Below, piece after piece: positions 45,978-63,584 of a DNA stretch of 64,000 bases. Numbering within the stretch: the first letter of the stretch is position 1; the number at the start of each line of letters is the position of its first letter. This DNA comes from Alitta virens (Eukaryota; Annelida; Polychaeta; Phyllodocida; Nereididae), in contig OW028577.1 in the NCBI GenBank assembly GCA_932294295.1, forward strand, positions 8,638,001-8,702,000. The letters run 5' to 3'. Below the pieces are notes generated by a model. The model was not told where the DNA came from. It worked only from the letters and a program-made list of their open reading frames with translations, and ran no database searches. A program made the translations under genes and the position numbers.

Positions 45978-45983
45978 TACATT
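45978..45983. repeat. target-site duplication, left copy (TACATT)
   Basis: Identical to 63,579-63,584 on the far side of the Polinton; 6 bp is the length made by Polinton integrases. Confidence 0.95.
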
Positions 45984-46260
45984 AGTAGTTACCGGTACAG
46001 TATAAACCCCCTTCGCAGCGAATTATCACCAGGTTATCGTAAACCTCCGGAATATCGCCAGGCGGCGCTGTAAGTATTAAGATTTGGCACCAGGTGGAGC
46101 TGTAAGTATTAAGATTTGGCACCAGGTGGCGCTGAGGATTGATTATCTGGACACCAGGCAGAGCTATCGAAGTTTTGAGTATTGAGACACCAGGTGGAGC
46201 TATAGAAGTTTAAGATTGGTCACGTGGTGGAGCTGTGTAGTAAATATTTGGGGACTAGGT
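45984..46260 (+). repeat. Polinton left terminal inverted repeat
   Basis: The first ~115 bp match the right end almost base for base (one mismatch seen at 46,017). Inside, it becomes a ladder of ~32-bp units with the core CACCAGGTGGCGCTG and spacer AAGTATTAAGATTTGG. The left end has one unit more than the right. Confidence 0.95.
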
Positions 46261-46328
46261 AATCTGAGTAGTATTTGATTGCGAGGTGAAAGGGTAGCTC
46301 TTGATATAACTCTATAACCGTGATTGAC

Positions 46329-46778
46329 ATGTCTTATACAATAACATGGTGCGCGTATTCATATCCTGATTGTGAGGATTCTAAATGTTTAACATTGTTA
46401 TACAGATCGGAGAATGTCTTTGATACATTAAATGAATGTATAAGCGATTATTATCGCTCTGGTACACCAGCACTGTGTATGAAACGTTGTTCTGACTGGG
46501 TTGTTAAATTTTATGCTTTAGGTGACTGCAAAACTTCGCAAAAAGATACATATAATCTCACATGGGTTGCGTATAATATTGTACAGTGTTTAATGTGTGC
46601 TGAAGAACATTATATAGAGATAACGAGGAGCGATGAGTCTTACACAGACCTTATCACTTGTTTAAAGAACTATAATGATAACATAGATATTGATAAGTAT
46701 AATACTGCTTATAGAACCATAGTTAATGTTGAAGTTTGTAGAAGCGATCCTTACTATGAAACCCCCAGCCAACTGTAG
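46329..46778 (+). CDS. cysteine-rich unknown protein
   Basis: 149 aa from the first ATG; the frame is open nine bases further up through a GTG. Eleven cysteines, no signal peptide or membrane segment, and alternating hydrophobic pattern suggesting helices. I recognise no family. It is the leftmost gene, next to the terminal repeat and upstream of the integrase. It may be an early or accessory function, but nothing in the sequence proves it. Confidence 0.6.
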   Translation: MSYTITWCAYSYPDCEDSKCLTLLYRSENVFDTLNECISDYYRSGTPALCMKRCSDWVVKFYALGDCKTSQKDTYNLTWVAYNIVQCLMCAEEHYIEITRSDESYTDLITCLKNYNDNIDIDKYNTAYRTIVNVEVCRSDPYYETPSQL

Positions 46779-46990
46779 CTCACTCAAAACGATGCTTTAA
46801 AGGTTAGTATATACATCAATACAACAATTAATTTGTAGACACATGTATATATAATTGTAGACACATGTATATATACCAAGGTAACAATTGACATATATTT
46901 TTGTTTCAGAGAGGATGCTAACGTGTATATAAGATGGTATATGGGGAAAATGTATTATATATTGTATTAAATTACATGTTAATAAAACTA

Positions 46991-47060
46991 GTATTTAACA
47001 CATGACGTCAGATGTTACTTTGTGTTAGTGTTTAACACATGACGTCAGATGTTACTTTGT
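46991..47060 (+). promoter_or_regulatory. two CRE palindromes in a 38-bp direct repeat
   Basis: TTTAACACATGACGTCAGAT is repeated (46,994 and 47,031). Each copy holds TGACGTCA (47,003-47,010 and 47,040-47,047), the full CREB/ATF site. It lies ~150-200 bases before the integrase ATG. A second duplicated word (GTAGACACATGTATATATA) sits at 46,836-46,877. Confidence 0.65.
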
Positions 47061-47200
47061 TTTGTATGTATATATTTTGTTTTGAACAATAAACAGTCAT
47101 TTGAGAAAAATCATATGACGTGTGGTTAATACTACTTAATACATGTGTTAGGATATATATTACACATAATATATCAGTAAACTATTTTTTTTTTAGAAAC

Positions 47201-48331
47201 ATGGCTAAGTCGAAGGAAATCGATTTGTTTTTAAGAGGTGTTTACTACACATTAGGACAACCTAGCAGCTACTCGGGTTTGCGTAAGTTATGGAGCGAGA
47301 TAAAAAAGATACAGCTCAAACCACCAGGTATAACATTAAACTTAGTAAGTAAATGGTTGAAAGAGCAGACGACACATCTTATTCACAGTACACCTCAACG
47401 TTTATTCAAAACTGAGCATATAATAGTAGAACATATAGATGAGCAATGGGATAGCGATATTATTCAGTTAGACGATTTAGCAAGATATAATAAGGGTTAC
47501 AAATATATCTTAATATGTATAGATATTTTTTCGCGCTATACATGGGCAAGAGCTCTTAAATCAAAGAGGTCTGCAGATGTCGCTACAGTTTTTACAGATA
47601 TTGTTAATACTTCCAATAGACTATGCAAATCGTTACGCACGGACCAAGGTGGTGAATATACAGGAGCACCATTTCAAAAAATGCTAAAAGATAAAGGTAT
47701 TAATCATATAATTGCTTATGGACGTCACAAGGCATCATATAGCGAACGATTCAATCGTACATTAGAAAATAAACTTTTCAAGTATTTCTACGAACAACAA
47801 ACAGTAATGTACATAGACGTTTTAGACGATGTTATGAGAAGTTATAATAATACTGTTCACAGTTCTATCAATATGGCGCCTGCTGATGTCAATACAGAAA
47901 ATTCGCACGATGTATATGAACGAGTATATATACCTATTCTCAACAGATGGGCTAAAACACCAGTAAGGTTCACTCTAAATATAGGCAATATTGTGAGACT
48001 GAGTTTAGCTGTTAGACCTTTTTCACGAGGGTATCACGAGAAATGGACAGAAGAACTATTTACAGTTTACAATAGGATACCATCACACCCGCCTAGGTAT
48101 AAAGTACAAGATCTCAACGGTGATAAAATCAAAGGATCATTTTATACTGAAGAACTAATGGTAACGCCTGTACAGCAACTCGAAGATATAACGTATAAGA
48201 TCGATAGAGTTATAAGTACCAAAAAAGTTAAAGGAAGGAAACTCAGTTTGGTTAAATGGTATGGTTACTCTAACAAGTTTAATACGTATATACCTTCTAC
48301 ATCAGTAAGGAAGTATATAGGTAAAAAATAA
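47201..48331 (+). CDS. Polinton integrase with C-terminal chromodomain
   Basis: Retroviral-type DDE integrase that inserts the element and makes the 6-bp target duplication. 376 aa from the ATG at 47,201 (MAKSKEIDLFLRG). An in-frame ATG further up (47,120) is less likely because a strong acceptor (T10 then AG at 47,195-47,196) sits between, suggesting a 5'-UTR intron. The Polinton-type N-terminal helix region precedes WDSDIIQLDDLARY (first Asp), LRTDQGGEY (second Asp) and SERFNRTLEN (Glu). The C-terminus is a chromodomain (IDRVISTKKVKGRKLSLVKW, YGYSNKF). Its stop overlaps the next start by one base (TAATG). Confidence 0.95.
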   Translation: MAKSKEIDLFLRGVYYTLGQPSSYSGLRKLWSEIKKIQLKPPGITLNLVSKWLKEQTTHLIHSTPQRLFKTEHIIVEHIDEQWDSDIIQLDDLARYNKGYKYILICIDIFSRYTWARALKSKRSADVATVFTDIVNTSNRLCKSLRTDQGGEYTGAPFQKMLKDKGINHIIAYGRHKASYSERFNRTLENKLFKYFYEQQTVMYIDVLDDVMRSYNNTVHSSINMAPADVNTENSHDVYERVYIPILNRWAKTPVRFTLNIGNIVRLSLAVRPFSRGYHEKWTEELFTVYNRIPSHPPRYKVQDLNGDKIKGSFYTEELMVTPVQQLEDITYKIDRVISTKKVKGRKLSLVKWYGYSNKFNTYIPSTSVRKYIGKK

Positions 48332-48756
48332 TGTTTGTGTATATTTCATCAGATGTTGACAGCGGTAATTATTTTCATGGTAACTCCCCAACATCATTTA
48401 GAGTTAAATTACCCGGTAGGATAACTTTCTTACCTCAAGGTAAATGGGAGGTAGCTCTACTTGATATTGATCTACCTAGACCTCTTGATAAATATCATTC
48501 TATATATATTTCTATCAACTCATCCATATGTAAACCTAGTCCCTTTAATTCCAGTCTTTCGCCTATATTAAACAGAGTATATTTTAACCAGATTAGTAAG
48601 GGGGCACCAGTATACTTTGATAACCCTCGCTATATACAACTAGGTGTGGATAGTTTAGACATTATAGATATATATTTAACAGATAGTTCTGGAGTTTGTC
48701 CGTCATTCAAACAAGGTAAAGTTAACGGAACACTCCATTTCAGATTAGTAGAATAG
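48331..48756 (+). CDS. minor capsid (penton-like, single jelly-roll) protein
   Basis: 141 aa. The opening FVYISSDVDSGNYF, the SFRVKLPGRI stretch and the WEVALLDIDLP core are the hallmark of the Polinton PX/minor capsid protein, predicted to form capsid vertices. It starts inside the integrase stop and lies directly before the major capsid region, the usual neighbourhood. The rest is beta-rich and ends in a strand, as expected for a single jelly roll. Confidence 0.85.
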   Translation: MFVYISSDVDSGNYFHGNSPTSFRVKLPGRITFLPQGKWEVALLDIDLPRPLDKYHSIYISINSSICKPSPFNSSLSPILNRVYFNQISKGAPVYFDNPRYIQLGVDSLDIIDIYLTDSSGVCPSFKQGKVNGTLHFRLVE

Positions 48757-48792
48757 ATTAGTTAAAGGATAATTATATATAGCATAACAAGT

Positions 48793-49257
48793 ATGGCCGA
48801 TAAGTCGCAATATTACTCTCTTAGTAGAGGTGTAGATTACGATATTTTACTAAAACACTTCAAGAACCAGGCGGATGGTGTTATGACCCAGCATATTATT
48901 ACATCGCGTCAGGGTAACAACAATAGTTGTACTAAAGTACGCATGGGACGTATAATAATGGTCAATAAACCAAAAAAAGGCACTAAAACTGTACATGACA
49001 AAACGTTGGATAAAGTAGAAGTTATTGATCCTACAGAGGTACAACGTCTTAGAGCATTAAATGACATAGAGGTCGAAGTTGCAGATATAAATGTAGAACG
49101 TAAAATACAACCTGCTCACTCAATACTGAGCGGCGCTAGCAGTAAGACCTCAGGTAAAAGGCAATTCTCGCAAAAGAGCATCATAGAAAAAAGAAAGAAG
49201 CTGAAGAAAACTGTAGACAAGGTTATACAGAGAACTAAGGACGTTTTTGATGTTTGA
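48793..49257 (+). CDS. basic Polinton protein of unknown function
   Basis: 154 aa, lysine/arginine-rich, especially the last 40 residues (SIIEKRKKLKKTVDKVIQRTK). No membrane segment. It sits between minor and major capsid genes and stops 11 bases before the major capsid ATG. A virion core or DNA-condensing role is plausible by position and charge, not shown. Confidence 0.75.
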   Translation: MADKSQYYSLSRGVDYDILLKHFKNQADGVMTQHIITSRQGNNNSCTKVRMGRIIMVNKPKKGTKTVHDKTLDKVEVIDPTEVQRLRALNDIEVEVADINVERKIQPAHSILSGASSKTSGKRQFSQKSIIEKRKKLKKTVDKVIQRTKDVFDV

Positions 49258-49268
49258 GTAATTACAGG

Positions 49269-50696
49269 ATGACCCAAGAAGTGTTAGATGATGCATATAT
49301 AGGTTATTCGGAAGAATTAGCAATATTCCAGAAACCTATACAAAATGTAGGCATTAAGAATAATCATATAACAACTTTTTATCCTGTAAATGATTTTTCA
49401 ACTCAAGGCGTTATACAGTTTCAAATTAATAATAATAGTAGTAATTATTTAGATCTTCGCAGAACACGGCTTAATATTACGTGCAAAATTGTAAGACAAA
49501 ATGGAGTTAGTATAGAGCCTGTCACAGTAGCAAAAGATAGCAATAGTAGAGAGAAGAGAGCAAAAGATGAAGAAAGCACAGATGCTGCAGCTAGTACCTC
49601 AACCTCTGCTGACACGTCTACTAAACAGGCTACTGTTGGCGTAGTTAACAATTTTATGCATTCAATGTTTAGCCGTGTTGATGTAGCACTACAGAATAAA
49701 GTGCTGACACATTCTGATGAATCGTACCCATATCTAGCTTATTTCAAAGCTTTACTACATACCAACACAGAGATGAAAAATACTACTCTCCAAATGGGGA
49801 TGTTTTACAAGGATACACCTGGAGAGTTAGGAGATCCTAATTGGCAATTAGGAGATAACAAAGGGTTAACAAAAAGATCTAGTTTCTTTGCTAACTCCAA
49901 TGAGGTAGATATGTCAGGTAACTTGTACTGTGATATTTTAGAGATATACAAGTTCATACCAAATGGTGTTAATCTAGGTATCACATTATATCCTAGCACA
50001 CCTGAGTTCTGCTTAATGGCTCCTGAGTTGACAGCTGGTGGTTATAAAGTACAGATTACTAGAGCTTCCTTAAGTGTTTCAATGATCGAAGTAATACCCG
50101 AAATATTGGTATCTCATGCTGAAATAATGCATAACAAACAAGCTATTTTCCCATATATTAAAACAGAGGTTAAAAAATTCACACTGGGTAAAGGACAGTT
50201 TTCATGTACTGTTAATGATCCTTTTGCAGGACGAGTACCATGCGAGATGGTTTGCGGTTTAGTTACAGATGTTAGTAATCATGGCACTCTGTTTACAAAT
50301 CCGTTTATGTTTGAACACACTTCTCTCAATTTCATCCAAGTAACTGTAGATGGTCATGACCTAGGTCAAGGCCCCATCATACCTTCATATAACAAAACAC
50401 CCGAAACAAGCTCATACATAGATGCATACAAAACACTTTGCGGAATTGAGTATGGTGACCATTTTAATCCTCTTTCACGCGAAGAATATATGCAAGGTTA
50501 TACATTCTATAGATTTGTTGCTGATTCTCAATATATTTCTAGCAATGACGATATCCTGCCGTTAAAGCGCACAGGTAATTTACGCATCAGTCTAAGATTT
50601 GCTGCGGCTTTACCAGAACCCACAACACTTATTGTTTTTGCAAAGTTTCCAGCCACAGTTACTATTGATAAATACCGCGGTGTGACGGATGTATAG
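49269..50696 (+). CDS. major capsid protein (double jelly-roll)
   Basis: 475 aa from the first ATG (MTQEVLDDAYIGYSEELAIF); the frame is open 15 bases further up only through a TTG. Recognised from the Polinton PY family: the N-terminal FYPVNDFSTQGVIQFQINNN region, the LTAGGYKVQITRASL strand region and the YMQGYTFYRFVAD block before the final strand. A Ser/Thr/Ala-rich loop at about residues 85-120 is likely surface-exposed. The fold assignment is established for the family; here it is by similarity. Length is in the usual range. Confidence 0.9.
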   Translation: MTQEVLDDAYIGYSEELAIFQKPIQNVGIKNNHITTFYPVNDFSTQGVIQFQINNNSSNYLDLRRTRLNITCKIVRQNGVSIEPVTVAKDSNSREKRAKDEESTDAAASTSTSADTSTKQATVGVVNNFMHSMFSRVDVALQNKVLTHSDESYPYLAYFKALLHTNTEMKNTTLQMGMFYKDTPGELGDPNWQLGDNKGLTKRSSFFANSNEVDMSGNLYCDILEIYKFIPNGVNLGITLYPSTPEFCLMAPELTAGGYKVQITRASLSVSMIEVIPEILVSHAEIMHNKQAIFPYIKTEVKKFTLGKGQFSCTVNDPFAGRVPCEMVCGLVTDVSNHGTLFTNPFMFEHTSLNFIQVTVDGHDLGQGPIIPSYNKTPETSSYIDAYKTLCGIEYGDHFNPLSREEYMQGYTFYRFVADSQYISSNDDILPLKRTGNLRISLRFAAALPEPTTLIVFAKFPATVTIDKYRGVTDV

Positions 50697-50730
50697 TTAG
50701 TACACAAACATCAGTCATAACTGTTACATC

Positions 50731-51408
50731 ATGACAGAGCAAGCATGTTTGATACCTTTTCAACTACCGAAGAATATATCAGTACAGGGCGCTACACAGG
50801 CTGGAAAAACGGAGTTTGTTAAACGTTTGTTAATAAATTATAAGGCAATGTTTACACCTCAAGTTGAAAAGATAATATACGTATACTCTGTATGGCAGGA
50901 TAATTTCGGTGACCTAGAAAATATCTTAGGCGATATTATAGAATTTAGGAAAGACATTCCATCAAAAAAATATTTGACAGAGCTCTGGGAAACATACAGA
51001 GCTCACAGTTTACTTGTTCTTGATGACCAAATGAGTAATTTAAATGATAACCTTCAGGGTTCACATGTTGCTGAAATAGTATGCGTTCTTAGCCACCATT
51101 GTCATGTTTCATGTATTATAACTTTACAGGACATGTTTTATGAAAGTAAAGCTGCTAGATTAATTAGTAGAAATTCTCACTGTATATGCCTTTTTCGTAA
51201 TCATAGAAATGGCCGCCAGGTATCATCTTTAGCAAGCCAGGTTCTACCTGGTGAAACGAAGTATTTCATGGACAGTTATGAACGTGCTACTAAAAGGAGT
51301 TATGGTTATTTAATAATTGATTTATCACCCAATGTTGACAAACGATATAAATTACGTTCTAATATATTTCCAGGTGAGGAAACGATTGTGTTTCTCCCTC
51401 AATCATGA
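50731..51408 (+). CDS. A32/FtsK-type genome-packaging ATPase
   Basis: 225 aa. Walker A is GATQAGKTEF near residue 20 and Walker B is LLVLDDQMS near 95, followed by a sensor-like VCVLSHHCHVSCIITLQD block. This is the short Polinton version of the ATPase that drives DNA into the capsid. Its stop overlaps the next start (ATGA at 51,405-51,408). Confidence 0.93.
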   Translation: MTEQACLIPFQLPKNISVQGATQAGKTEFVKRLLINYKAMFTPQVEKIIYVYSVWQDNFGDLENILGDIIEFRKDIPSKKYLTELWETYRAHSLLVLDDQMSNLNDNLQGSHVAEIVCVLSHHCHVSCIITLQDMFYESKAARLISRNSHCICLFRNHRNGRQVSSLASQVLPGETKYFMDSYERATKRSYGYLIIDLSPNVDKRYKLRSNIFPGEETIVFLPQS

Positions 51409-51731
51409 AACAGATCAAAGAGAACATTACTTTTTTAAAAGCCGTGGCTTTACTTAGCAAGGATCAAGTTAAAGCTATCTTATCACATATCAGTAAGAGT
51501 CAGATTCTGGCAGTGGTTGAAATAGCTAGAAATATTCTCACAGGCATTGTGACATTAAAACGAGGCTATAAGAAGTCTCTTAAATTGTACAAACGCGTCA
51601 TTAGAGATTTGGCTGACAAACATGCAACACTTAACACTCGACGTCATTTAATCACCAGTAAAGCAGATGTTATAACGTTACTGATAAAAAGTGTTCTGCC
51701 TAAGCTTGTTGCAGTTGTAGGCCATGGCTGA
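51405..51731 (+). CDS. small basic/hydrophobic Polinton protein
   Basis: 108 aa, alpha-helical. The first half is amphipathic and the C-terminus hydrophobic (VITLLIKSVLPKLVAVVGHG). A basic stretch TLNTRRHLITSKADV lies before it. Such small proteins are common beside the Polinton ATPase and may be virion membrane-active or core proteins, but I do not claim a function. Overlaps both neighbours by 4 and 8 bases. Confidence 0.75.
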   Translation: MKQIKENITFLKAVALLSKDQVKAILSHISKSQILAVVEIARNILTGIVTLKRGYKKSLKLYKRVIRDLADKHATLNTRRHLITSKADVITLLIKSVLPKLVAVVGHG

Positions 51732-52110
51732 GGAAAATATTGTTATACCTAGAGATAAATATAATAGAATGCTAGAACAACTTAAAAGTGTTAAGGATAA
51801 CAAACTAATACAGTCTACAGATAATAAAGAGGGTGACGAATCCTTAATATCACACTACGATAAGATAAATACTGCACAGAGAGCAAGAGGTGATATAACT
51901 CATAAAGAGACTGATTACCCCCCAGGTCTTAAACATGATGATATAAATACTTTTATAAAGAAGTTAACAAAGAAAAAAAGAAAACATAATCACACAATTA
52001 CTCGTGATAAATGTAACAACAAGACAGCTGACAAACGTAACAACAAGACATCTAAACAACACGATCGAAAATCTAAACTTAAAGCAAATTGGATTAGAGT
52101 TTTCAAGTGA
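51724..52110 (+). CDS. small basic Polinton protein
   Basis: 128 aa, hydrophilic and rich in Lys, Asn and Asp. It has a DYPPGLKHDDI segment, a lysine-rich tract (KKLTKKKRKHNH) and a final NWIRVF. The PPG..., lysine tract and terminal aromatic resemble small Polinton/adintovirus core proteins, but I cannot assign it. Starts 8 bases inside the previous gene. Last gene of the packed block. Confidence 0.65.
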   Translation: MAEENIVIPRDKYNRMLEQLKSVKDNKLIQSTDNKEGDESLISHYDKINTAQRARGDITHKETDYPPGLKHDDINTFIKKLTKKKRKHNHTITRDKCNNKTADKRNNKTSKQHDRKSKLKANWIRVFK

Positions 52111-52495
52111 ATTGGTATTAGAACTAAAAGTTATAATTGAGGTATTAAAGATATATATAGTACAACTGTTTTATAAAATACGTTATTAAGTAATAACAAC
52201 TGTAATGAATATTCATACAACAGACGTTCTGGCGTCATAGCTATTAAAAACTAGCATCACGCACTGTTGTTTTAAGTACACGGGACACGCAATGACACTA
52301 TAACAAGTAAATGGTTATTTAATGACATGATGGTACACGATGATATGTCAAACAAACAAACAAACATACAGCCGGTTAATAATTAAAAATGCTGAATACT
52401 ATAAAAGGCCTGATACTGGATCTATGCATTATATCGTTTCTACGAAGACTTGCTGAACTCTCCCATATCGCAACTGATATATCGCAACACACAAA
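52111..52495 (+). promoter_or_regulatory. promoter region of the PC4-like gene, TATA box
   Basis: Canonical TATAAAAGG at 52,400-52,408, 88 bases before the start codon. No ORF in the stretch. The same box occurs at 53,433-53,441 and 53,902-53,910, each upstream of the next accessory gene. This suggests separately transcribed units, unlike the capsid block. Confidence 0.65.
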
Positions 52496-52788
52496 ATGGC
52501 AAACAATGCGGTGACAAGGAAACACTACAATCAGGGAGGAACGCAGATAAAAGGCCAGTTTTTGTGGCATCGAGAAATTAGCTCAAGGAAATTTCTCACG
52601 CTCCAGCGGTACAGAGGCAAGGTATCAATGCATCTAAGAGTATACACTTTAGACGACCAAAATTACTGTCTGATCCCTACAAAGAAAGGGGTTACGCTGG
52701 ACAAGCAGCAAACGCGAGATTTGCTTGAGAACATGCGTAACATGGCTGCTTTTATAGGTATCGTAAGTATCTTGGTATAATACTGTTA

Positions 52789-52827
<39 letters not shown>

Positions 52828-53391
52828 TATATGTAACATTGTAATAATCTCCCCATTTACTATTTGTTATAGGATAGTAACACGCATCAAACAGACGATG
52901 GAACTGAGGCAATTACGAGTGATTCGGCTAGAACGGACATGATTGATGATATAGAGTATATTACTGAGGATAATGAGATGTTCGATGATACGGCTGAGGT
53001 TGATGAATATTCTCAGAATATTTTAAAGATACACATTGGTAAAAATGTGCACTGTAGGGCAAAAAAGGCCTCCTGTACAGTTGATCTGCGCCACAGTTTC
53101 TTTAGAAACATGTCGCTTACATCTGAACACCCAACACAAAGAGGTGTAAAGCTCACGAAGTATGAGTTTGCGAAACTGCTAGACCTCCTGCCTCAACTTG
53201 AAGACAGATGGAGCGGTTTGGCTGAACTGACAGCATGTTACAACACTCATGATACTCAGGATGATGTGCATGCATGTGACCATTGCACACCTAAGCCATC
53301 TATACCAAGACATGCGCATCGTCCTTACAATATCTCACTCAGACAGCCTACTGCTTCATCCAGTTCTACAGTCACAAATTCTCCTAATTAA
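52496..53391 (+). CDS. tandem PC4-like single-strand DNA-binding protein, spliced
   Basis: Two exons, 52,496-52,762 and 52,873-53,391, phase 0, donor GTAAGT and acceptor TTATAG; 261 aa. The first domain has the PC4 (transcriptional coactivator p15) pattern: LQRYRGKVSMHLRVYTLDD, a short turn, then TKKGVTLDKQQTRDLLENM. The second exon repeats it in diverged form, ending TQRGVKLTKYEFAKLLDLL. PC4 domains bind single-stranded DNA and act in transcription and replication. A role in the element's replication or late transcription is inference. The intron (110 bp) includes an (AT)n tract at 52,790-52,824. Confidence 0.75.
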
Positions 53392-53939
53392 CTTAATAAC
53401 TCGAATATGCTTTATAGGTTATATACTATTGTTATAAAAGGTGGTAGAACATAGTTCGTTATACTATAATTATATATCCATAATATTATATAAGTATATT
53501 TTTTGTATTATTATATATAATCTCTTTATATATATATATATATATGTAAGTACTTTGTTATAATATACAGACACTATGTTTACGCGTGTGCTGCATTTTT
53601 GTCAGTAATGCACCAATATATATCACCACATTAATAAATATATACACGTATATTAAATTGTTGTGTTTTTTATAATGTCAGCCAAAGCATATGTTTCAAC
53701 CGTATTTTAAACAAATAAGATGATCTATTTGAGAAGTCTCAACTACATACGTTAGTACAACAAGTTTAGGTGCGGCATGATGAGTCGTTTATGAGAGAAT
53801 GCTCTACACATGCAGATACTGATAGTCGCACGCAATTTCGTACTTCTCATTTACCGCTTCCTAACCGTATTGTTAATTACATGATAGCTGTTGACTACAT
53901 GTATAAAAGGTAGGACCTGTCCCGCTCTTACAACTCGCC
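53392..53939 (+). promoter_or_regulatory. spacer with two TATA boxes
   Basis: TATAAAAGG at 53,433-53,441 and 53,902-53,910. The second is only 30 bases before the ATG at 53,940, implying a very short leader. Between them lies A+T-rich sequence with AATAAA near 53,634, which may end the preceding transcript. No ORF. Confidence 0.55.
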
Positions 53940-54682
53940 ATGGAAATACTACGAGACTATGCTGATGCATTTATTTACCATGTTAATACCAATGAGATAG
54001 CTATAATGCTACGCTGTGAGGGATTGCTGAAGGATTCTGATTTAATTGTTATTAGGTCACAAACATCACTCCTGGATAAGACTAAAATGCTACTGAAAAC
54101 ATTATACATAGAAAAGTGTTACAAAGCTACAGCATTGTTCTTCAGATTTTTGCAAAGAGAGTACGAGGATGTGTTTAGTACAATTCCAGGATTAATAGGA
54201 GGTAAACGCACAAGTATTATTATTAGTACTTCAATAACTCTCAATGTTATGTGTATAGATGGCGACGTCAGCATCGATCTAACAGATACACAGGTAAGGT
54301 ATACAATATATCCTTAACATATATTTAAAACATACGCATATGTATATATTAATTATGGATAATATCTTTTTAATTACAGGGTACTGTTCTTAAAGAGGAA
54401 CTGACAATATCGCTACCTCTACAGATGTTTATTAACCTGGTACACTACATACCGCCTTTATCATGCGGTGAAGTCAACGCTACTGTGCATCTGGGGGGCT
54501 TTTTCTACCTAATCAAGGAGGGATGTGTAACAACATTGTGCGAGACCATCAGTTATGATCAAAAGAGCGAAGGAGTATCATTAACTATTGATGATCTACA
54601 AAGTATCGACACCGCCCTACATCATGTGGAACATGCTGCACCCGAGATGACTCTTTTGACCCCTTATTTTTGTTTTATATGA
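53940..54682 (+). CDS. CARD-like death-fold domain fused to two PC4-like units
   Basis: Exons 53,940-54,293 and 54,380-54,682, phase 0 (GTAAGG donor, TTACAG acceptor); 218 aa. Residues 1-80 match the CARD helix pattern: LRDYADAFIYHV, EIAIMLRCEGLLKDSDLIVI, DKTKMLLKTLYIEKCYKATA and LFFRFLQREYEDVF. CARDs mediate assembly of caspase and innate-immune signalling complexes. The rest looks like two diverged PC4 units, the second ending EGVSLTIDDLQSIDTALHHV. Same strand and same intron phase as the upstream PC4-PC4 gene, so probably a paralogue that gained the CARD. Interference with host death or immune signalling is inference. Confidence is lower for the PC4 half. Confidence 0.7.
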
Positions 54683-54892
54683 TGTTATTGTACTATTTGT
54701 TATTGGTATTGTACTATTTTTATTATTAAAAATGTATTGAACATCAAAGATGATTTCCGGGTTACATATATATGTATTACTCAAATACATTGTCTATGTC
54801 ATATAGTCTACTAATATATGCTAACCAGACGAACTTAATATTAATGTATAACTCTGTACATATAGTATATACTGTTGTATGATTTTATTTAG

Positions 54893-55480
54893 TATCAAAA
54901 GTAAGTCTTCAAGCGACTTTGTATACACAGTACTAATCAGCAATATATATAATAATAACATATCAAAAGTAAGTCTTCAAGCGACTTTGTATACACAGTA
55001 CTAATCAGCAATATATAATAATACTAGCAGTATTCACAAATATTATAGAGATATATACAGGTGTAGCATTGCAATATGCTAGTCACACAGATCATGGAAA
55101 ATGTAAAAAACAGCAGATCTACTTCATATATATTATAAGAGTGATTAACATCCGTTAGAACATTATATATAATGCCATCTCTATATACGAGTAATTTTCA
55201 TAATCATTACCTACATATACAATATCATAGAAGTAGTAGAGTATATACTTTGAGTATAATATTAAAGGACAGTTAGCATCAATTAGTTCACTGTATAAGA
55301 AGAACATCTCTATACATGAACAATACAAATATATACAAGTATGACATTACAATACGATAGGTATACATATCATAGAATAGTACCTATATAATACCTTGGG
55401 TAATAAAGTGCATTAACAGACATATAATATAAGTACAATTAGCATCAATTAGATCATGTTGTGAGAATATCTCTATACAG
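54893..55480. repeat. repeat-rich centre between convergent gene blocks
   Basis: A 57-bp exact direct repeat (starts 54,893 and 54,961; AAGTAAGTCTTCAAGCGACT...) is followed by about three diverged units. These are marked by AGCATCAATTAG and ATCTCTATA(C/T)A words (near 55,147, 55,276 and 55,440). No ORF. May hold the 3' ends of both gene blocks or an origin/packaging signal; function unknown. Confidence 0.75.
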
Positions 55481-55482
55481 GT

Positions 55483-56828
55483 GTACTTTTGCCAATATAA
55501 CTACGTAGTTTCTTTCTATAAGCATCAGTAGTTTCATCATCATCATCAGAAGTGTCAGTATAAGAAAGTGTAACTTTAACTGTAGTATCCGTAACCTTAA
55601 TTGTAGAATCCAAATCAGTTGTCGGTGTTCCTTGTGACGTATATGGCTGTGCTGATGAGCAGGGAATCGATTCATTTATATCATGGTCGGTGGTATCCGA
55701 GGAATCGTCGCTTGTGCTAAAAAGTATTAAAAAGTATATATGTATTATATCTATATACTGGAGTAATATGTTATATATATATAGTGTTTCTTCTGTTTTG
55801 TTACCTGCTATTAGTAGATTGACCCCCTCCCTGGCGCAGCCTACTCAGTGCCCCCGTTAGCGTATGCCTGGCCATGCTAGTGACACCCGTCAGAATTGCC
55901 GTGCCAGCTGTAGGATTTCTCTATATATAAAATAAAACAGTTAATGAATGAGTAATATTAACATCAGGCGTGAACAATATGTATATATGATCGCATATAG
56001 TTTAATTGAACACATCAGCTAATTGCGAGGTTCGCAACGCCCCCCAAGTAGCCAATCTTAAACATTGTAGCGCCATCTGGCGTCCAAAATAAATCAATAT
56101 GCAGCGCCACCAAGTGTCGATCCTGAACATATATATAGCGCCACCTGGCAATATTATTCTGCTTAAAATAGACATGCTGTTCAACGATACATACAGCGCC
56201 ACCAAGTGTCAAATTTTACCATGTATAGCACAACATTGTAATATTCTGTTTAAAATAGATATACTGTTCAAAATTATATAACATTAGTTCTGAATAACAG
56301 CTATAAAAAATAGCAGCAGAGTCTTTGACAACAAATAATTAAGTCATTAAATAACCTTACCTTATGAAGCCATATGCCAATGCCCGTCGATACAGCTATT
56401 AGCAAAACTCCAGAGATGGATGAAATGATCACTGTAGCGCTGTTTGATTGTTCTATAACGACGTAGCCGTATTGGTGTTCGATCTGATCATTACTGCGAC
56501 TAATGACGGGTTCAGGAATCTTGTTTCTCCTCCTTTGACATACAATTTTTGCCGATATGTCATATGCAGGGAGGGGTATGCTTGAATGACAGTACCTGGT
56601 ACCCGTCATGTCCACGAAAGAAAGCATACCGTATTCCATGTTTGAGAACTCCTCTATGGGTACTCGCTCTAATGCCTGCGACTTCGTACAATCTGCGCGG
56701 ATGTCTTTCCCCTTGTTAGTAACCTTGCATAGGCATAAACGATTGGCGCAAATGTAGCGATATCCGTGTGTCAGTGCTACTAAACTAATAAGCGCAATCA
56801 GAATGTTAAGACGCTGTACTGTCTCCAT
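55483..56828 (-). CDS. type I membrane protein A, spliced, LRR-N-cap-like
   Basis: Exons 56,361-56,828, 55,805-55,920, 55,483-55,716; about 272 aa. The ATG at 56,828 opens a signal peptide (LNILIALISLVALTHG). The ectodomain has the cysteine pattern CxCxx...ADC...RVP resembling the N-terminal cap of leucine-rich-repeat receptors. Exon 1 ends with a transmembrane helix (IISSISGVLLIAVSTGIGIW). Exons 2-3 encode a Ser/Thr/Asp-rich cytoplasmic tail with an acidic run near 55,535-55,550. Related to protein B (57,642-58,475). Could be a virion surface or host-mimicking receptor; undecided. Confidence 0.7.
56030..56235 (-). repeat. internal array of terminal-repeat units
   Basis: Five degenerate copies of the terminal unit (AGCGCCACCAAGTGTC, AGCGCCACCTGGC, AGCGCCATCTGGCGTCC), in the same orientation as the right terminal repeat. 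They lie in the 440-bp first intron of membrane protein A. They end at about 56,215 and are replaced by unrelated A+T-rich sequence. Confidence 0.85.
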
Positions 56829-57641
56829 GTTAACTCTGTAAATGTTTCTAAGCAACTGAATAGAAGTTCTAACCAGTGGCAATTCGTTATGTAATTAACC
56901 ACCCCCCTGACTCTATTATGCAATTAAACCCCTTCTTGTAACGTCTATGGTTAGCTAACAGTACAGTGTGAACTGTTTTAGGGGGGTAATTAGCAGGGTT
57001 GCAATGTCTATACGACAGCAATGAAAACATCGGCTCATGACTGTTATAGTAAACATATGTTACTTTAATGACATAACAATGTTTAAACTGTCGATGTATA
57101 TATATCTTAATGAATAGCATTCACAGTACACCGAATGGTTTTTGTGCATCTTTATTGTCAATGAAAAATTCATTTGTGCAAAGTTATTGTCAATGAGTAA
57201 TTCAGATGTTTTATGCGCAAATTTATTGTCAATGAGGAATTCGGTTTTTTTAACTACTTACTAATATGTGCAAGGATGGCCGAAATTATTGTACTCTGTA
57301 ATATCTATACACATGTACGTGCTAGTACAATCATAATATACATATATACACACCTATCGCTGTAAATACATTTATAGTTATAACTATTGAAGACTATCAT
57401 GCAGATGCTATATATATATATATATATAGCTGTAAAAAAGTACAACAACAATTTAGGTGTAACTCCAAATATGTTTTAATCAAGCAAATAGTACTACTAT
57501 AGTATTTCATGATATATACTATGGTATATAGATACATATCAACAATGCTACAATATATAGTTTTTATAGGTTACTGAGACATATTATTACACATTGGGGT
57601 ATATATAAATATACGGAACAGTAAGTCACGCAAATATTCAA
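56829..57641. repeat. spacer with a three-copy tandem repeat at 57,138-57,243
   Basis: Three copies of TTTATTGTCAATGA(G/A)(G/A)AATTC with an upstream TGTGCA word lie at about 57,140, 57,174 and 57,214, with 34-40 bp spacing. They are upstream of membrane protein A, so they may be promoter elements. The minus-strand ORF at 56,887-57,120 has no recognisable features. A short AT tract lies at 57,410-57,427. Confidence 0.6.
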
Positions 57642-57796
57642 TTAAACAAGGCCCTCTCTGGATTCTGTCATGGCTGAACTTGTGCTTAGTCGGCCTTGCG
57701 AAAGTTGCGACCTCTGTTTTCTGCAGTAGCGTACCATCTTTAATATAGTTGTTATGATCTACAGTGTAAAGACAAGTGTTATTCATGTGTTCATAC

Positions 57797-57842
<46 letters not shown>

Positions 57843-58475
57843 ACTATAAATTATACAAACATACCTTGAACGTAATGTATGCCAGAGCTATACACGACAC
57901 ATTAAATTGGAAGGTGCTAATAGTAGTCGCGTGCTTGCTAACGTCTGACAAACCATTATCATTATGTCTCGTTATAACAGCGAGGGTGTTGACATTTACT
58001 ATATTAGATATAGGTGATGCGCTCGAAGTATCCTGTGTTGATAGGAATCCCGTGTGTGAATACGTAGTACACTGCACAGTTTTAGACATATCTGTAATAT
58101 AAAGCGCATTATATGTATACTGTTGTGATATCGTTGCGATTGAAATACATTTTTTAGCCTAATATAAGACTCACCTTTATCAGTGGCTAGACATACAATT
58201 GAAGCCTTGTGTACACCGGTAACCTTCTGTATTGCATTATGACAGAATGCAGTTCCTGACATATTAACTAGCGTAATATGTTGTACAATGTACGACGAGA
58301 ATGATGGTACTTGTTGTAGCCATGATGATTTGGTGCAATCCGCTTGGATGCCCCCGTCGTAAAGCGTAATACAATCACATACGTTAAAGCGTTGTAAGCT
58401 CTTATAAGATCCACATAATATAGCAGTATTGGTAACTGCGTTTATGCACAGAACAAAGGTAAAAAGAAGAAGCAT
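57642..58475 (-). CDS. type I membrane protein B, spliced, paralogue of A
   Basis: Exons 58,175-58,475, 57,865-58,091, 57,642-57,758; phases 1 and 0 agree; 214 aa. Signal peptide at MLLLFTFVLCINAVTN (ATG 58,475; an upstream ATG at 58,532 is possible). The cysteine-rich ectodomain shares CDC, the ADCTKSSWLQQVP block and the M(S/T)GTxxCH block with protein A, the LRR-N-cap-like pattern. A Ser/Thr-rich stalk precedes a hydrophobic segment at the exon 2/3 junction, then a short basic tail. Exon 3 also has an alternative open frame, so its reading is less certain. Intron 2 holds (AT)20 at 57,800-57,839. Confidence 0.65.
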
Positions 58476-58800
58476 TATCGAGTTGTTATGGCGATCTACA
58501 CTGGATGTATATATTACGATTAAGTAGTTCATAATATAGAATATTTGTGTACAGGTCACTGACTAAAGGTTATAATATAGAACATTCTAAAGCTATTTTG
58601 CAAAACAACACACTCGTATTACAAATCGTACAGTAGAGAATCATGTAAATATATTATAACAGTACTACTAGACTGGTTATGATACAGATATAACAGTAAA
58701 ACGTAATTTGTAAGTTCTAGTCATATATTTAAGCATGAAACTTTCTGGTGTGCTGTAAAGCATTTCTATGACCATACAGTAGGCATTATGTATGCACATA

Positions 58801-61800
58801 TCAGTAACCGTAAGGTAATGTGTTGTATGTATTTTTAATTATTACTCTTTTATCAAACACTTTTCTATATATTTTGCTTGTACGTCTATTATAAACTATA
58901 CCTCTATGTTTAACTCGCGAAATCTGATTACTAGTTGGGAGTTTGACTAATTGTTTTTGACCAAACACTATCTGTCTCATACAGTCAAAATCAACGATTG
59001 CGGAATTTGTGTGGTTTAATGAAATACCTTTGATTTTACGTACAACGGTATCAGTGTTTAATTTGTATGAGTAGCTCTTAGGACCTGTAGACAAGAAAGT
59101 CTTAATATATGTATCCTGTTTGAGCTCATCAGTTAATTGACCTAACAGATCACCTGTTTCAACAACCTGTTCACCATTTTGCTCAACGAAAATAACTGAA
59201 TCGGTGTCGTAATATAGCGTATTACGCCCTATTTTGTTTAGCACTTGTAGCAAATGTAGCCGTGCTAAGGATGTTGTAAAAATACCTATAATCTCATTAG
59301 TGAAAGTTGATTCCTCTTCAAAAGTTTCGGCATTCATAACATCCACTACAATATAATCATTTGAGATTAGATGAAAATTCATTATATTTTTTGTGGGATC
59401 ATTCTTCATCTGAGTATATTCATTTAGGGTTTTCATATAGAATGACCTGGGTAGATTTTGTCTCTGCACAAACTTCCCCCACACACTGTTGAGGAACAAT
59501 TTACAAATTGTTCTAAGTGGTGGATTGTGCGCAATTGCATCTTTATCAAGCATGATACCCTGCTCTCTGTTATAGTAAGATATATAGCTATCTTTATCGG
59601 CATTAGTTGTTACCCACTGAGGATATCCTGATGCCTGTTGTTTCTGTTTAAGGAACATTTTAACATATTCAGTGAATATACTACCAAAAACATCATCATT
59701 TGTAGTGCTAGGAAAGTGATACACTTCATATATCTTAATCAATACGTAACCTTGTTTAATGGCTTCTTTCAACTCTGGTGTTGTCCATGTACCAAAGAGC
59801 GCTCTTTTAACATCACTGCATTTACATTGCGTCTGGGTTTCCTTTGATGAACATGTACCGCATAATGGGAACTTGAGTTTACCTCTACACCTCACCGGTA
59901 GAACAGGTATGTATAGACCTCGTGGCGGCACAATTCGTACCTGCGCTAGACCATAATATGATTCTAGAGTATAATCAAAGATATCAGGGTCCTTAATTAT
60001 TGTAGCGTGGGACGTAGGATAAACTCCAGACATCGTGATATGGGGATATAACGAAGTTACGTCATAGAAACGTATCTTCTCTCCATGTTTAACATCATAA
60101 TAGAGTTTTGTTGGCTCGACTCGTCCGCCAAAAAAACTATCACGTATTTTCAAAGGCTTGACCGTGTCGCACTGCTTCACAAATTCACTCATAATTGTGT
60201 TGGTTTGTAGTAATTTATCATAGTGACACTCCCATATCGAAATAACATTGTACCCTAGTGTTCCTATTTCATGAAGACGTTCTATAGTTCTGTTGTAAAG
60301 AGCTTTCAAAGATAGGTGTGTACGTGGATCCTTGGCCTGTCTGTCTTTCTGACATGTATGACCATGAAAACGACATCCTAGGTATTCGTAAACGGTATTA
60401 CTGTTTATATGTATACCATCGACTGTATACCTTGTTCCTGGTATACGAAATTCACCACCATTCCTAGCATGCTGTATAAATTTGTCCTCTGAGTGACTTA
60501 TCCATTCTAACCATAAAGCTGACTTCTGACTATCATTATGATGTTTACCATACCCCTGTGCGGGTATTTGCGGTATAGGAGAGCTGACGAATGACGACTC
60601 TGATATCATGTCATTATTAATAATTTCGTTATTAAAATACCATTCATCTCTTCTGAGAACAGCCTCACCTGATCTACCATCTGTTAAAGTCACATTATGT
60701 ACTTCATAGAGCATAAGTTGTCTAATTACCTGCATTGCACAAGATGCTAGGGTAGCATGAGCGAAAGGATCTATACCTGCGATGTTTGAATCCTGTATTG
60801 TTGTAACTGCCATTATAAGTTTTCTAAAACTAGTGCATGCTTCCCTCAGAATGGTTACATCAGCCCGTGTGTACTCTAGCAATTCTTTCTGAAAATCAAA
60901 TGTTTTACCCTGTTGCTCATTGTACCAAATGAAGAACTCTGTTCTGTCAGCTGTAGACATAAAATCAACACCATAATAATATGGCGCAAACATTGGTCCA
61001 ATGTATTCTTGGTTCTCTAGTGTATTTGCTAAGTGTGGAAAATCACCTTTCTTCAATTCCCCTTGTAGGCCTAGAGCTTTGGGTAGTGCCTTTAAACGCA
61101 TGGGTAGAAAATTCAAACTATCTATGAATCTAATGCTCACACCCTGTTTAATATTCATCAACATAATCTTTGTGCCAGTAAATATAACTTCTGGGAAAAC
61201 ACCATTATCTACGCAATAACCGAGAACAAAATGGGCATCAAATGCTTTAGCGTTGTGTGCAATTGCCGTAACATCTTTATGTTGAGGCGTTAATAACCAC
61301 TTACAGAATTCCTCTGTTGTATCTGGCCCCTTAAATATTTTTTCCCTCTTACCGCATGTATCATTGTTACATAAATCCCTTATAAAATGTTTAAGGGAAT
61401 TGTCTTTAACAGAGCAGGTATTGCATCTATCGCCGCAGTTCTCACATTTAGAGTAAGGTGTGAACGCATTATCCTCACAATTATCACATACTGTTTGACA
61501 TACTAAAAAGTTAGGTATATGTTTCTGTAAACCGCAATATGGTCTCTTACAGTTTACACATTTACGACATGGAGTGCATAGTTCTAGAGGTATACACTTA
61601 TCGCAGTCATCACGTGGTTTATTCTTGTAACCTTTTTCGCATGTGATGATATTGTTTTGACACGTTTCAAAATCATAATATAAAAATTTTCCTGATGACA
61701 TCTTAGCTTTCTTTATCCTATAGAAACATAAATGTTCGCCTAAAACATACTCATGACAGCATGTACATAACCATTCGCCACACATATGTAAATGTTTGGC

Positions 61801-63063
61801 TCTTTTTGATGTATTTAGTATTACGAAACATGTCTTACACATGTAGTATTGTTCGCAGAGAGAGGGCTGATCTTCATCCTTCAGAACACCTCTGTCATAC
61901 CGTCTGCGTTTTTTATGTCTCTCATAACACAGTGTATTACGACACATCATATTACAGTCTATGCATTCTATAGATGTATTGTCAAACATGCAATTTTCAG
62001 AACAGCATGTTCTACATACTGTATCACAACCGTGCTTTCTATTTTTGTTATATACTTCAAAACAATGATTGCATATCTTACTGTTGACAAAAAAACCATT
62101 GATACCTGTGATACTATGATAGTGATTATCCTTCAGATATAAAAAAATCTTTCTCGGTCTAGTTAATATACCTTTGTATATGACATCGTTGCCTGTATCC
62201 CCCGATATAACAACAATCTGGATGTCTAATTCTGACTCAAACTTATGTAGGTCCTTAACTTTAACAGGCGAAGTTGTTGATACACCCGCCTTTCTGTGAA
62301 GTCTGATGGCACAGCTACGTTGCGAATCGTGCGCTTTACTCATAGACCTATCTTTTCTTATAAGTTTTGCAAATTTTGCTTTGCTCATATTATCTAGTTT
62401 AGCTTTGCATGTTATAATAGCCCTACCTGCACACAAATATTCATTTCTTATCACAGGAATAAACACCATTGAATGTTTTTTTTTGATTGTACAACTAGCT
62501 GATAAGGGATCAGTATCTACAATTGCTCTGCTACCACCGCCTCCTTGGCTGTCAGCGCTCATGATGCCCACGTTAATTTCAAAAGTATCATCAATATCTA
62601 GTGATTTGTTCGATTGGAGAACGGAGTTTATCCTATAAATAAAATAAAAACTGTAACACTATAATATGTTAAATTATTAATGTTGTAAAAAGATTATAAT
62701 TATTATGTCGTCTCATTCTTACCTTTCCATTATAACATCTGCTGTAATGTTGTGTTTTGGTTGACAATGTATAAACACTTCCCTCTCCAATCCTGAGTGA
62801 TTAATAGTGATCCTTGCTTTATCATCACCATTAGGATGTTTCTCATTAACCAACTCTATAACATCCGTGAACATGTTATGTAATTCATTCTGAGCGTTAA
62901 GTAGTTGTACGCCTTGCAAGTTATTATTAAATTTGGTTTTGTATGTTACTTCTTCTATTCCAAACTTTCTAGATATTTTTTGACTCACAGGTCTAATAAT
63001 ATAAGCCTTTGTATCAGCATTAGCGCCCTCTGTTCTACTCCTTTTGGTCAATATATCATCCAT
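58801..63063 (-). CDS. protein-primed DNA polymerase B, spliced
   Basis: Replicates the element from terminal protein-capped ends. Two exons: 62,723-63,063 (ATG at 63,063) and 58,801-62,632. The 90-bp intron has GTAAGA/TATAG, and the phase fits (2+1). Length 1390 aa. Exon 1 is the conserved N-terminal region of Polinton PolB and ends TADVIMER; without it the start would be a GTG. Exon 2 has a cysteine/histidine-rich zinc region (residues ~300-420 and ~445-520), Exo I YYDFETC (~434), Exo II HNAKAFDAHF (~579), Exo III YTRADVTIL (~705), Pol A FYDVTSLYP (~971), Pol B CKLFLNSVWGKF (~1160) and Pol C YYDTDSVIF (~1256). All catalytic residues are present. Confidence 0.96.
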
Positions 63064-63334
63064 TATTAACCTTGCTTAACAAACATCTCTCTCTATATAA
63101 TATATATCAAAATGTTTGTACAGTTAATGACGTTTACCCCTATATATACAGCTTTTACAACAACAGTGTATAGCTCATGCCATTATCACATAGGGCTACC
63201 TACAAAGTTTAACTATCAAGCAACTTCCAAAACCCCCTGAGGTTATAGTATTGTCATGCCTGTATCGTTAAATAATTAGTAATTCATCACGCTTTTACGT
63301 GTATAGGACTCTTCCCAAGCCATTATAACATTTA
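63064..63334. promoter_or_regulatory. polymerase upstream region
   Basis: A+T-rich, no ORF. A TATATAATATAT tract at about 63,096-63,108, some 40 bases before the polymerase ATG on the minus strand, is the likely TATA element. Confidence 0.4.
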
Positions 63335-63578
63335 CCTTGTGCCCCAAAAATATTACATACACAGCGCCACCAAGCGGTCAATCTTAAAAGTCTACAGCTC
63401 CACCTAGTGTCCAAATATTCTACCCGCAGCGCCACCTGGTGTCAAATCTTAATGATCCTCAACGCCACCTGGTGCCAAATCTTAATACTTACAGCGCCGC
63501 CTGGCGATATTCCGGAGGTTTACGATAACCTGGTGATAATTCGCGGCGAAGGGGGTTTATACTGTACCGGTAACTACT
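63335..63578 (-). repeat. Polinton right terminal inverted repeat
   Basis: Reverse complement of the left end. The outer ~115 bp are nearly identical, then four to five ~32-bp units with the core CAGCGCCACCTGGTGTC. One unit fewer than the left repeat. Confidence 0.95.
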
Positions 63579-63584
63579 TACATT
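63579..63584. repeat. target-site duplication, right copy (TACATT)
   Basis: Identical to 45,978-45,983. Confidence 0.95.

What the first reader, a model, noticed from the sequence alone, without database searches (positions are those of the whole stretch)
53940..54682. Polinton gene joining a CARD-like domain to two PC4-like units
The first ~80 residues follow the CARD helix pattern, and the rest looks like a diverged tandem PC4 domain. I know of no described Polinton gene with this architecture. A death-fold adaptor domain on a viral DNA-binding scaffold suggests a factor that targets host caspase or innate-immune complexes, perhaps at element DNA. Sequence shows the pattern and splice sites; function is inference.
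Basis: partly seen in the sequence, partly recalled or inferred. Interest (0 to 1): 0.92.

Follow-up and report, generated by a model that had tools for sequence, protein, structure and literature searches.

The report
Polinton gene fusing CARD to PC4-like units
A virus-like mobile element in an animal genome carries a two-exon gene that joins a cell-death adaptor domain (CARD) to what looks like a DNA-binding scaffold, and related elements in the same genome keep it, which suggests that these elements interact with the host's cell-death machinery.

Summary
The finding holds up and is larger than described. The window carries a complete 17.6-kb Polinton (45984-63578: inverted repeats, 6-bp duplication TACATT, PolB, integrase). 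The gene at 53940-54682 has a 118-codon exon, an 86-nt GT..AG intron and a 100-codon exon. The unnamed 671-Mb host genome holds many copies in several diverged classes with the same exon layout, under purifying selection. The CARD is real: a 73%-identical copy passes the Pfam cut-off (28.4 against 23.9 bits), the family profile ranks Apaf-1 and ASC CARDs first among solved structures, and comparison with host CARDs beats every column shuffle. The window copy alone is sub-threshold. The second PC4-like unit is supported only by profile comparison of the diverged family (E 2e-6); Pfam finds no PC4 there, and the first unit is weak. Single-sequence folds were uninformative. A second Polinton-like group carries a stand-alone CARD gene. 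Best reading: a CARD decoy or adaptor on a nucleic-acid-binding scaffold. Function is inferred, not shown.

The parts
45978..45983 (.). left copy of the 6-bp target duplication TACATT
45984..46139 (.). left terminal inverted repeat (begins AGTAGTTACCGG)
47201..48331 (+). retroviral-type integrase with a sub-threshold chromodomain
   Evidence: Pfam rve E 2.2e-11, Chromo E 9.1e-5 (22.7 bits, cut-off 25.1)
48331..48756 (+). minor capsid candidate
   Evidence: position only; no library match
49269..50696 (+). major capsid candidate
   Evidence: position and recalled motifs; no library match
50731..51408 (+). packaging ATPase candidate
   Evidence: Pfam FtsK E 0.016, below cut-off
52496..52762 (+). 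neighbour gene, exon 1: genuine PC4 unit
   Evidence: Pfam PC4 E 1.6e-9, 37.6 bits, cut-off 25
52873..53391 (+). neighbour gene, exon 2: second PC4 unit
   Evidence: Pfam PC4 E 0.072; profile comparison with PC4 units 25.8, 0 of 200 shuffles
53902..53908 (+). TATAAAA, 38 bases before the start codon
   Evidence: the exact motif is present in 2 of 19 copies examined
53940..54191 (+). exon 1, codons 1-84: CARD
54192..54293 (+). exon 1, codons 85-118: first half of PC4-like unit 1
   Evidence: weak: E 0.014, 1 of 60 shuffles as good
54294..54379 (+). 86-nt intron, GTAAGG...TTACAG
54380..54682 (+). exon 2: end of unit 1, PC4-like unit 2, stop codon
   Evidence: profile comparison of diverged family E 2.3e-6, 0 of 60 shuffles; no Pfam match
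58801..62562 (-). family B DNA polymerase
   Evidence: Pfam DNA_pol_B_2 E 4.8e-42
63455..63578 (.). right terminal inverted repeat
63579..63584 (.). right copy of the 6-bp target duplication TACATT

Best explanation
The gene encodes a 218-residue Polinton accessory protein: an N-terminal CARD (closest among solved structures to Apaf-1 and ASC) followed by a diverged tandem PC4-like scaffold, perhaps derived from a tandem-PC4 gene such as the one next to it. The scaffold most likely binds single-stranded DNA or dimerises, as PC4 does, and holds the CARD where the element is replicated or transcribed. There the CARD most likely engages host CARD proteins as a decoy or capping partner, so that the cell does not die while the element replicates. 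Shown: the element, the gene layout, the CARD homology, the conservation. Supported: PC4-like unit 2. Inferred: unit 1, DNA binding, the host partner, the inhibitory direction.
For: CARD. PC4-like unit 2. Genuine tandem-PC4 neighbour. Same exon layout in 14 near and 13 distant copies; a CARD-like exon 1 upstream of exon 2 in 16 of 16 distant loci fetched, 13 intact-looking and 3 damaged. dN/dS at or below 0.25 in 33 of the 38 values that could be computed. The CARD is about as conserved as the tail (near against far classes: 28% identity for the CARD, 26-31% for the tail parts). The host has CARD proteins as possible partners, including CARD with Bcl-2. In Frog virus 3, loss of the viral CARD gene raises apoptosis (PMC4974522, passages).
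Against: No partner, DNA binding or effect was tested. Window copy below the Pfam CARD cut-off. No Pfam or PDB match to PC4 in exon 2. Folds uninformative. 13 listed copies match only from about residue 58-70 on; in the two examined the middle of the CARD is missing, yet this class has multiplied, so the CARD may be dispensable. No relative found outside this genome.
Confidence: 0.5

Rival explanations
1. The CARD is a self-assembly module with no host target: CARD-CARD contacts polymerise the PC4-like protein along element DNA, making a nucleoprotein for replication, transcription or packaging.
For: CARDs are known to form filaments (established knowledge); the protein appears to pair a CARD with a DNA-binding-type scaffold and sits in three distant copies directly before the integrase (L024-L026). 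CARD and tail are about equally conserved.
Against: A second Polinton-like group carries a CARD without this scaffold. A class with a damaged CARD multiplied.
Confidence: 0.25
2. The protein is a sensor or trigger: on binding single-stranded DNA (its own or that of a competing virus) it clusters CARDs and promotes host death signalling, for release or for exclusion of competitors.
For: Layout of a DNA-binding-type scaffold plus a death-fold domain, as in cellular DNA sensors (recalled).
Against: The only viral CARD for which I read an effect limits apoptosis (PMC4974522, passages); many near-identical copies persist in the genome (26 of 150 listed rows identical in exon 1).
Confidence: 0.15
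3. The N-terminal domain is a helical look-alike rather than a CARD, and the tail is unrelated to PC4.
For: Window copy below the Pfam cut-off; A1 rows also give weak chance-level families (PPI in 4 of 19, Trp_repressor in 3 of 19); a non-CARD chain (MreC) at E 0.022 follows the CARDs in the PDB list; poor models; no Pfam PC4 in exon 2.
Against: A related copy passes the Pfam cut-off; PDB ranks 1-8 are CARDs; 0 of 200 and 0 of 60 column shuffles reach the CARD score, 0 of 60 the exon-2 PC4 score.
Confidence: 0.05

Closest known systems
Apaf-1 CARD (for example PDB 3ygs_C) and ASC CARD
   Same: Full-length profile match over residues 4-82, E 0.0016 and 0.006
   Different: Apaf-1 has its CARD before a nucleotide-binding domain, ASC after a pyrin domain (recalled); here it precedes a PC4-like tail and is encoded by a mobile element
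Ranavirus vCARD (Frog virus 3 64R)
   Same: A CARD gene in a DNA virus of animals; postulated to interfere with host CARD proteins; deletion raises apoptosis (PMC4974522, passages)
   Different: Different virus group; no PC4-like tail reported in the passages seen; sequence not compared here
PC4/p15 (PF02229) and the neighbour tandem-PC4 gene 52496-53391
   Same: Unit 2 matches a PC4 set over 63 columns; two units in tandem and one short intron as in the neighbour
   Different: Below Pfam detection; carries a CARD; the intron lies inside unit 1, whereas the neighbour has it between the units
Stand-alone CARD genes of a second Polinton-like group in the same genome (L059, L061-L064)
   Same: A CARD gene carried in multi-copy elements
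   Different: No such tail seen; the CARDs group apart in a 26-row tree and a direct profile comparison of the two kinds gave no match

Membership tests
Polinton/Maverick element | type B DNA polymerase | tested here: met
   E 4.8e-42
Polinton/Maverick element | RVE-family integrase | tested here: met
   E 2.2e-11
Polinton/Maverick element | 15-20 kb with terminal inverted repeats and a short target duplication | tested here: met
   17,595 bp, TACATT on both sides; size range from PMC4028283 passages, repeats and duplication as criteria recalled
Polinton/Maverick element | FtsK-like ATPase | tested here: inconclusive
   E 0.016, below cut-off; a chance-looking G-alpha match scored better
Polinton/Maverick element | jelly-roll capsid proteins | tested here: inconclusive
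   candidates without library match
Polinton/Maverick element | cysteine protease | tested here: inconclusive
   none found among the frames scanned; short frames not scanned; present in the other group (L061)
CARD | sequence profile | tested here: met
   family level; window copy alone 17.8 bits against 23.9
CARD | six-helix death fold | tested here: inconclusive
   single-sequence model, pLDDT 46
CARD | homotypic CARD-CARD binding | not testable with these tools
   needs a binding experiment
PC4 (PF02229) | curated Pfam profile match in the tail | tested here: not met
   0 of 15 and 0 of 18 exon-2 rows; hence 'PC4-like', not filed as PC4
PC4 (PF02229) | profile-profile similarity to PC4 units | tested here: met
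   unit 2, diverged family: E 2.3e-6, 0 of 60 shuffles; inconclusive with the near family alone
PC4 (PF02229) | single-stranded DNA binding | not testable with these tools
   needs a binding experiment
viral CARD inhibitor (vCARD kind) | blocks host CARD-dependent death | not testable with these tools
   needs expression in cells

The most novel reading that the evidence does not exclude
Polintons of this animal carry dedicated, old CARD effectors, acquired on at least two separate occasions: a CARD mounted on a tandem PC4-like single-stranded-DNA platform, kept in many element families, and a stand-alone CARD in a second group. The fused form docks the host's CARD death machinery onto element DNA and so controls host cell fate while the element replicates. 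It would be a viral counterpart of a DNA-sensing death-fold adaptor.
Probability: 0.3. Interest if true: 0.9.

Novelty: new variant of a known kind. Interest (0 to 1): 0.78.

Why it matters
How far Polintons behave as viruses in animals is still an open question (recalled). A gene that joins a host-type death-fold domain to a nucleic-acid-binding-type scaffold, kept under purifying selection in diverged element classes, is what a virus in conflict with its host would be expected to carry, and it makes that question testable with one small protein. A separately placed CARD gene in another Polinton-like group would make the CARD pathway a repeated point of contact between these elements and this animal.

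Tried and rejected
Tried without result. (1) The large protein database was switched off, so relatives outside this genome could not be sought there. (2) viral-contig scans with exon 1, the near-family alignments of both exons, the capsid candidate and the diverged exon-1 alignment found no relative; the diverged exon-2 alignment could not be scanned. (3) Single-sequence folds of the two exons were too poor to use, so no fold search was made. (4) First PC4 tests with the near family only were inconclusive; a reversed alignment scored as well or better, and shuffles in 2, 27 and 44 of 200 cases. One row of the PC4 set (L071, a host-like PC4) runs past its exon. (5) PHROGs gave nothing for the exons; Rfam gave nothing in the window. 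(6) The capsid and ATPase candidates found no convincing solved structure.

Considered and rejected: a chance helical bundle (shuffle tests); a one-off capture in a single copy; a false intron (same donor and exon length in other classes); the two Polinton CARD kinds being one recent gene (separate groups in the tree, though it has 89 columns and is unrooted).

Rows dropped. A1 (19 rows) leaves out the identical copies L001-L008 and the broken L027, L028. A2 (15 rows) leaves out L009 and L010 (exon 2 split between frames), L014, and L018 (no exon 2 found). A4 (20 rows) leaves out L014, L015, L017-L020, L022, L023, L025, L026, L080 (near-duplicates), L089 (shorter exon) and the damaged L081, L084, L093. 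A5 (18 rows) leaves out L015, L017, L019, L020, L022, L023, L025, L026, L080, L089 and L081, L084, L093. The tree used 14 host, 4 stand-alone and 8 window-kind CARDs. Of the 150 places listed, 8 came as loci and 20 were fetched; of the 150, 16 were fetched.

Full report
The element. The gene lies in a complete Polinton/Maverick-type element. Its ends are inverted repeats at 45984 and 63578 (17,595 bp), flanked on both sides by the same six bases, TACATT. It encodes a family B DNA polymerase (58801-62562, minus strand, E 4.8e-42) and a retroviral-type integrase (47201-48331, E 2.2e-11). The ATPase candidate (50731-51408) reaches FtsK only at E 0.016. The capsid candidates have no library match and are named from position and recalled motifs. 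No adenovirus-type protease was found among the frames scanned.

The gene. A start codon at 53940 follows a TATAAAA at 53902; the exact motif is present in 2 of 19 copies examined. Exon 1 runs to 54293 (118 codons), the 86-nt intron starts GTAAGG and ends TTACAG, and exon 2 runs from 54380 to the stop at 54682 (100 codons). The frame closes inside the intron. In 14 related copies the donor is GT (13) or GC (1) at the same place, with an AG before exon 2. In 13 copies of more distant classes exon 1 is 118 codons in 12 and 113 in 1 (the script asked for GT or GC after the exon, so only the length is independent). I take the splice model as sound, although no RNA reads were available. In some copies the frame stays open through the intron (open frames up to 247-301 aa).

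Copies and classes. The host genome (671 Mb, 23 contigs, unnamed) gave 150 scored matches of 364 candidates for exon 1. By hand count 26 rows are 100% identical at protein level (the window included), 115 of 150 span the exon (from residue 4 or earlier to 117 or later) without a stop, and 13 match only from about residue 58-70 to 118; in the two of these that I examined (L027, L028) residues 29-57 are missing and the frame shifts. Eight copies with identical exon-1 protein are 97.8-100% identical to the window over about 3.35 kb. Exon 2 of a distant copy (L024) found 150 scored matches of 312 candidates, in identity classes near 100, 57, 55, 53, 44, 41, 39 and 37-38%. I fetched 16 of these across the range; all 16 have a CARD-like exon 1 upstream, 13 intact-looking and 3 damaged or truncated. 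In three distant copies the gene lies directly upstream of the integrase (L024-L026).

Selection. Between the window and the 69% class, synonymous differences per site are 0.75-0.87 in the CARD part and 0.75-0.82 in exon 2, close to saturation, while dN is 0.14-0.20 and 0.26-0.33; in the short exon-1 tail they are 0.39-0.68 with dN 0.23-0.29. Of the 38 dN/dS values that could be computed, 33 are at or below 0.25; the others are 0.30-0.52. Between near and far classes the CARD is about as conserved (28%) as the tail parts (26-31%). The gene is therefore old and under purifying selection.

The CARD. The window copy alone matches Pfam CARD at E 0.0035, 17.8 bits, under the 23.9 cut-off, over positions 3-82 of 85. 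Of 19 rows in alignment A1, 15 match, the best (L010) at 28.4 bits and E 1.7e-6; weak chance-level families also appear (PPI in 4 rows, Trp_repressor in 3). Of the more diverse 20 rows in A4, 9 match. Profile A1 against the PDB ranks ICEBERG (E 0.019) and then Apaf-1 CARDs (0.051-0.061) first. Profile A4 ranks seven Apaf-1 CARD sequences (E 0.0016-0.0019) and ASC (0.006) first, followed by an unrelated chain, MreC, at 0.022. Profile comparison with 14 host CARDs of the same genome scores 49.6 against a maximum of 17.1 in 200 column shuffles; the distant classes alone score 35.1 against a maximum of 16.5 in 60. The single-sequence AlphaFold model of exon 1 has pLDDT 46 and is no evidence either way.

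The tail. Pfam finds no PC4 in exon 2 (0 of 15 rows; 0 of 18 rows), and PDB profile searches find no PC4. With the near family alone, comparison with PC4 units was inconclusive (2, 27 and 44 of 200 shuffles as good in three set-ups; reversed controls as good). With the distant classes, exon 2 matches a set of PC4 units from this genome over 63 columns, E 2.3e-6, 0 of 60 shuffles. The end of exon 1 (residues 87-118) matches the first strands of PC4 only weakly (E 0.014, 1 of 60 shuffles). I therefore call the tail PC4-like: unit 2 supported, unit 1 plausible. The gene next door (52496-52762 and 52873-53391) is a genuine tandem-PC4 gene: its first unit scores 37.6 bits against a cut-off of 25, its second is sub-threshold in Pfam (13.1 bits) but beats all 200 shuffles. 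A genome search for PC4 (150 scored of 568 candidates) lists many rows of identical score, as repeats give.

A second group with its own CARD. Scanning the genome for CARD (150 scored of 272 candidates) showed, besides host genes, large classes of near-identical 93-110-codon CARD frames, most of the 150 rows by eye. I read five pieces around such frames. PolB-like matches lie in four of them (L059, L061, L062, L064), matches to the window's capsid candidate in two (L059, L061), and an adenovirus-type protease (Peptidase_C5, E 3.2e-5) was scanned and found in L061; L063 shows only a match to another Polinton frame. The long PolB-like frame of L064 has no Pfam match and rests on the window's PolB and recalled motifs. 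The three CARDs scanned score 40.0-48.7 bits. In a tree of 26 CARDs these form one group among host CARDs, while the window kind forms another on a long branch; a direct profile comparison of the two kinds gave no match. The tree is short and unrooted, but with the different gene layouts it favours separate acquisitions.

What it probably does. The host has possible partners: a protein with CARD and Bcl-2, two with CARD and a tyrosine-type kinase (one with a sub-threshold SH2), and two with paired CARDs and a sub-threshold ZU5; this also marks the host as an animal (inference). In Frog virus 3 a small CARD protein limits apoptosis (PMC4974522, passages). I think the protein most likely uses a nucleic-acid-binding PC4-like scaffold to place a CARD at element DNA, where it caps or diverts host CARD complexes. 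Shown are the element, the gene, the CARD homology and the conservation; DNA binding, partner and direction are inferred. An assembly role without a host target is the main rival.

What is known. Searches of the held open-access papers for Polinton with 'CARD domain', 'caspase recruitment' or PC4, and for adintovirus with PC4, found no paper. Broader searches showed nothing relevant in their listings (only the top rows are shown, and most concern apoptosis alone). Listings of 40 of 316 Polinton papers and 30 of 50 adintovirus papers were seen. A word search of two preprints found none of the CARD, caspase, death-domain or PC4 terms (PMC11071296, PMC11071308). Most subscription papers are not in that library. 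No relative outside this genome was found (protein database unavailable), so how widespread the gene is remains open.

Noticed in passing
L061:4888-5214, L062:4887-5198, L063:4872-5153, L064:4944-5276, L059:4776-5144: Stand-alone CARD genes in a second, multi-copy Polinton-like group.
   Followed up: partly
L027, L028: A class of 13 listed copies lacks a full match to the CARD; in the two examined the middle of the CARD is missing and the frame shifts, while the neighbour PC4 gene is still found.
   Followed up: partly
window 56301-56828 and 57999-58532 (minus strand): Two frames that look like related membrane proteins with similar cysteine patterns; somewhat alike frames occur in L059, L061, L062 and L064 (by eye).
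   Followed up: no
window about 54893-55020: A direct repeat of roughly 55 bases just downstream of the gene (by eye).
   Followed up: no
L029:658-1773 (minus), L033:1318-3186, L040:1-1998 (minus): Host-side frames joining CARD with Bcl-2 (L029) or with a tyrosine-type kinase (L033, L040).
   Followed up: no
L059 and L060 (neighbouring pieces): Genes of the second group and of a window-type element lie next to each other on one contig.
   Followed up: no
L024-L026 and L078-L092, end of exon 2: In distant classes exon 2 runs on past the window protein's end into a CxxC-containing stretch (by eye).
   Followed up: no
window 43415-44683 (minus): Frame outside the element with GDSL-lipase (just below its cut-off) and NADAR domains together.
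   Followed up: no
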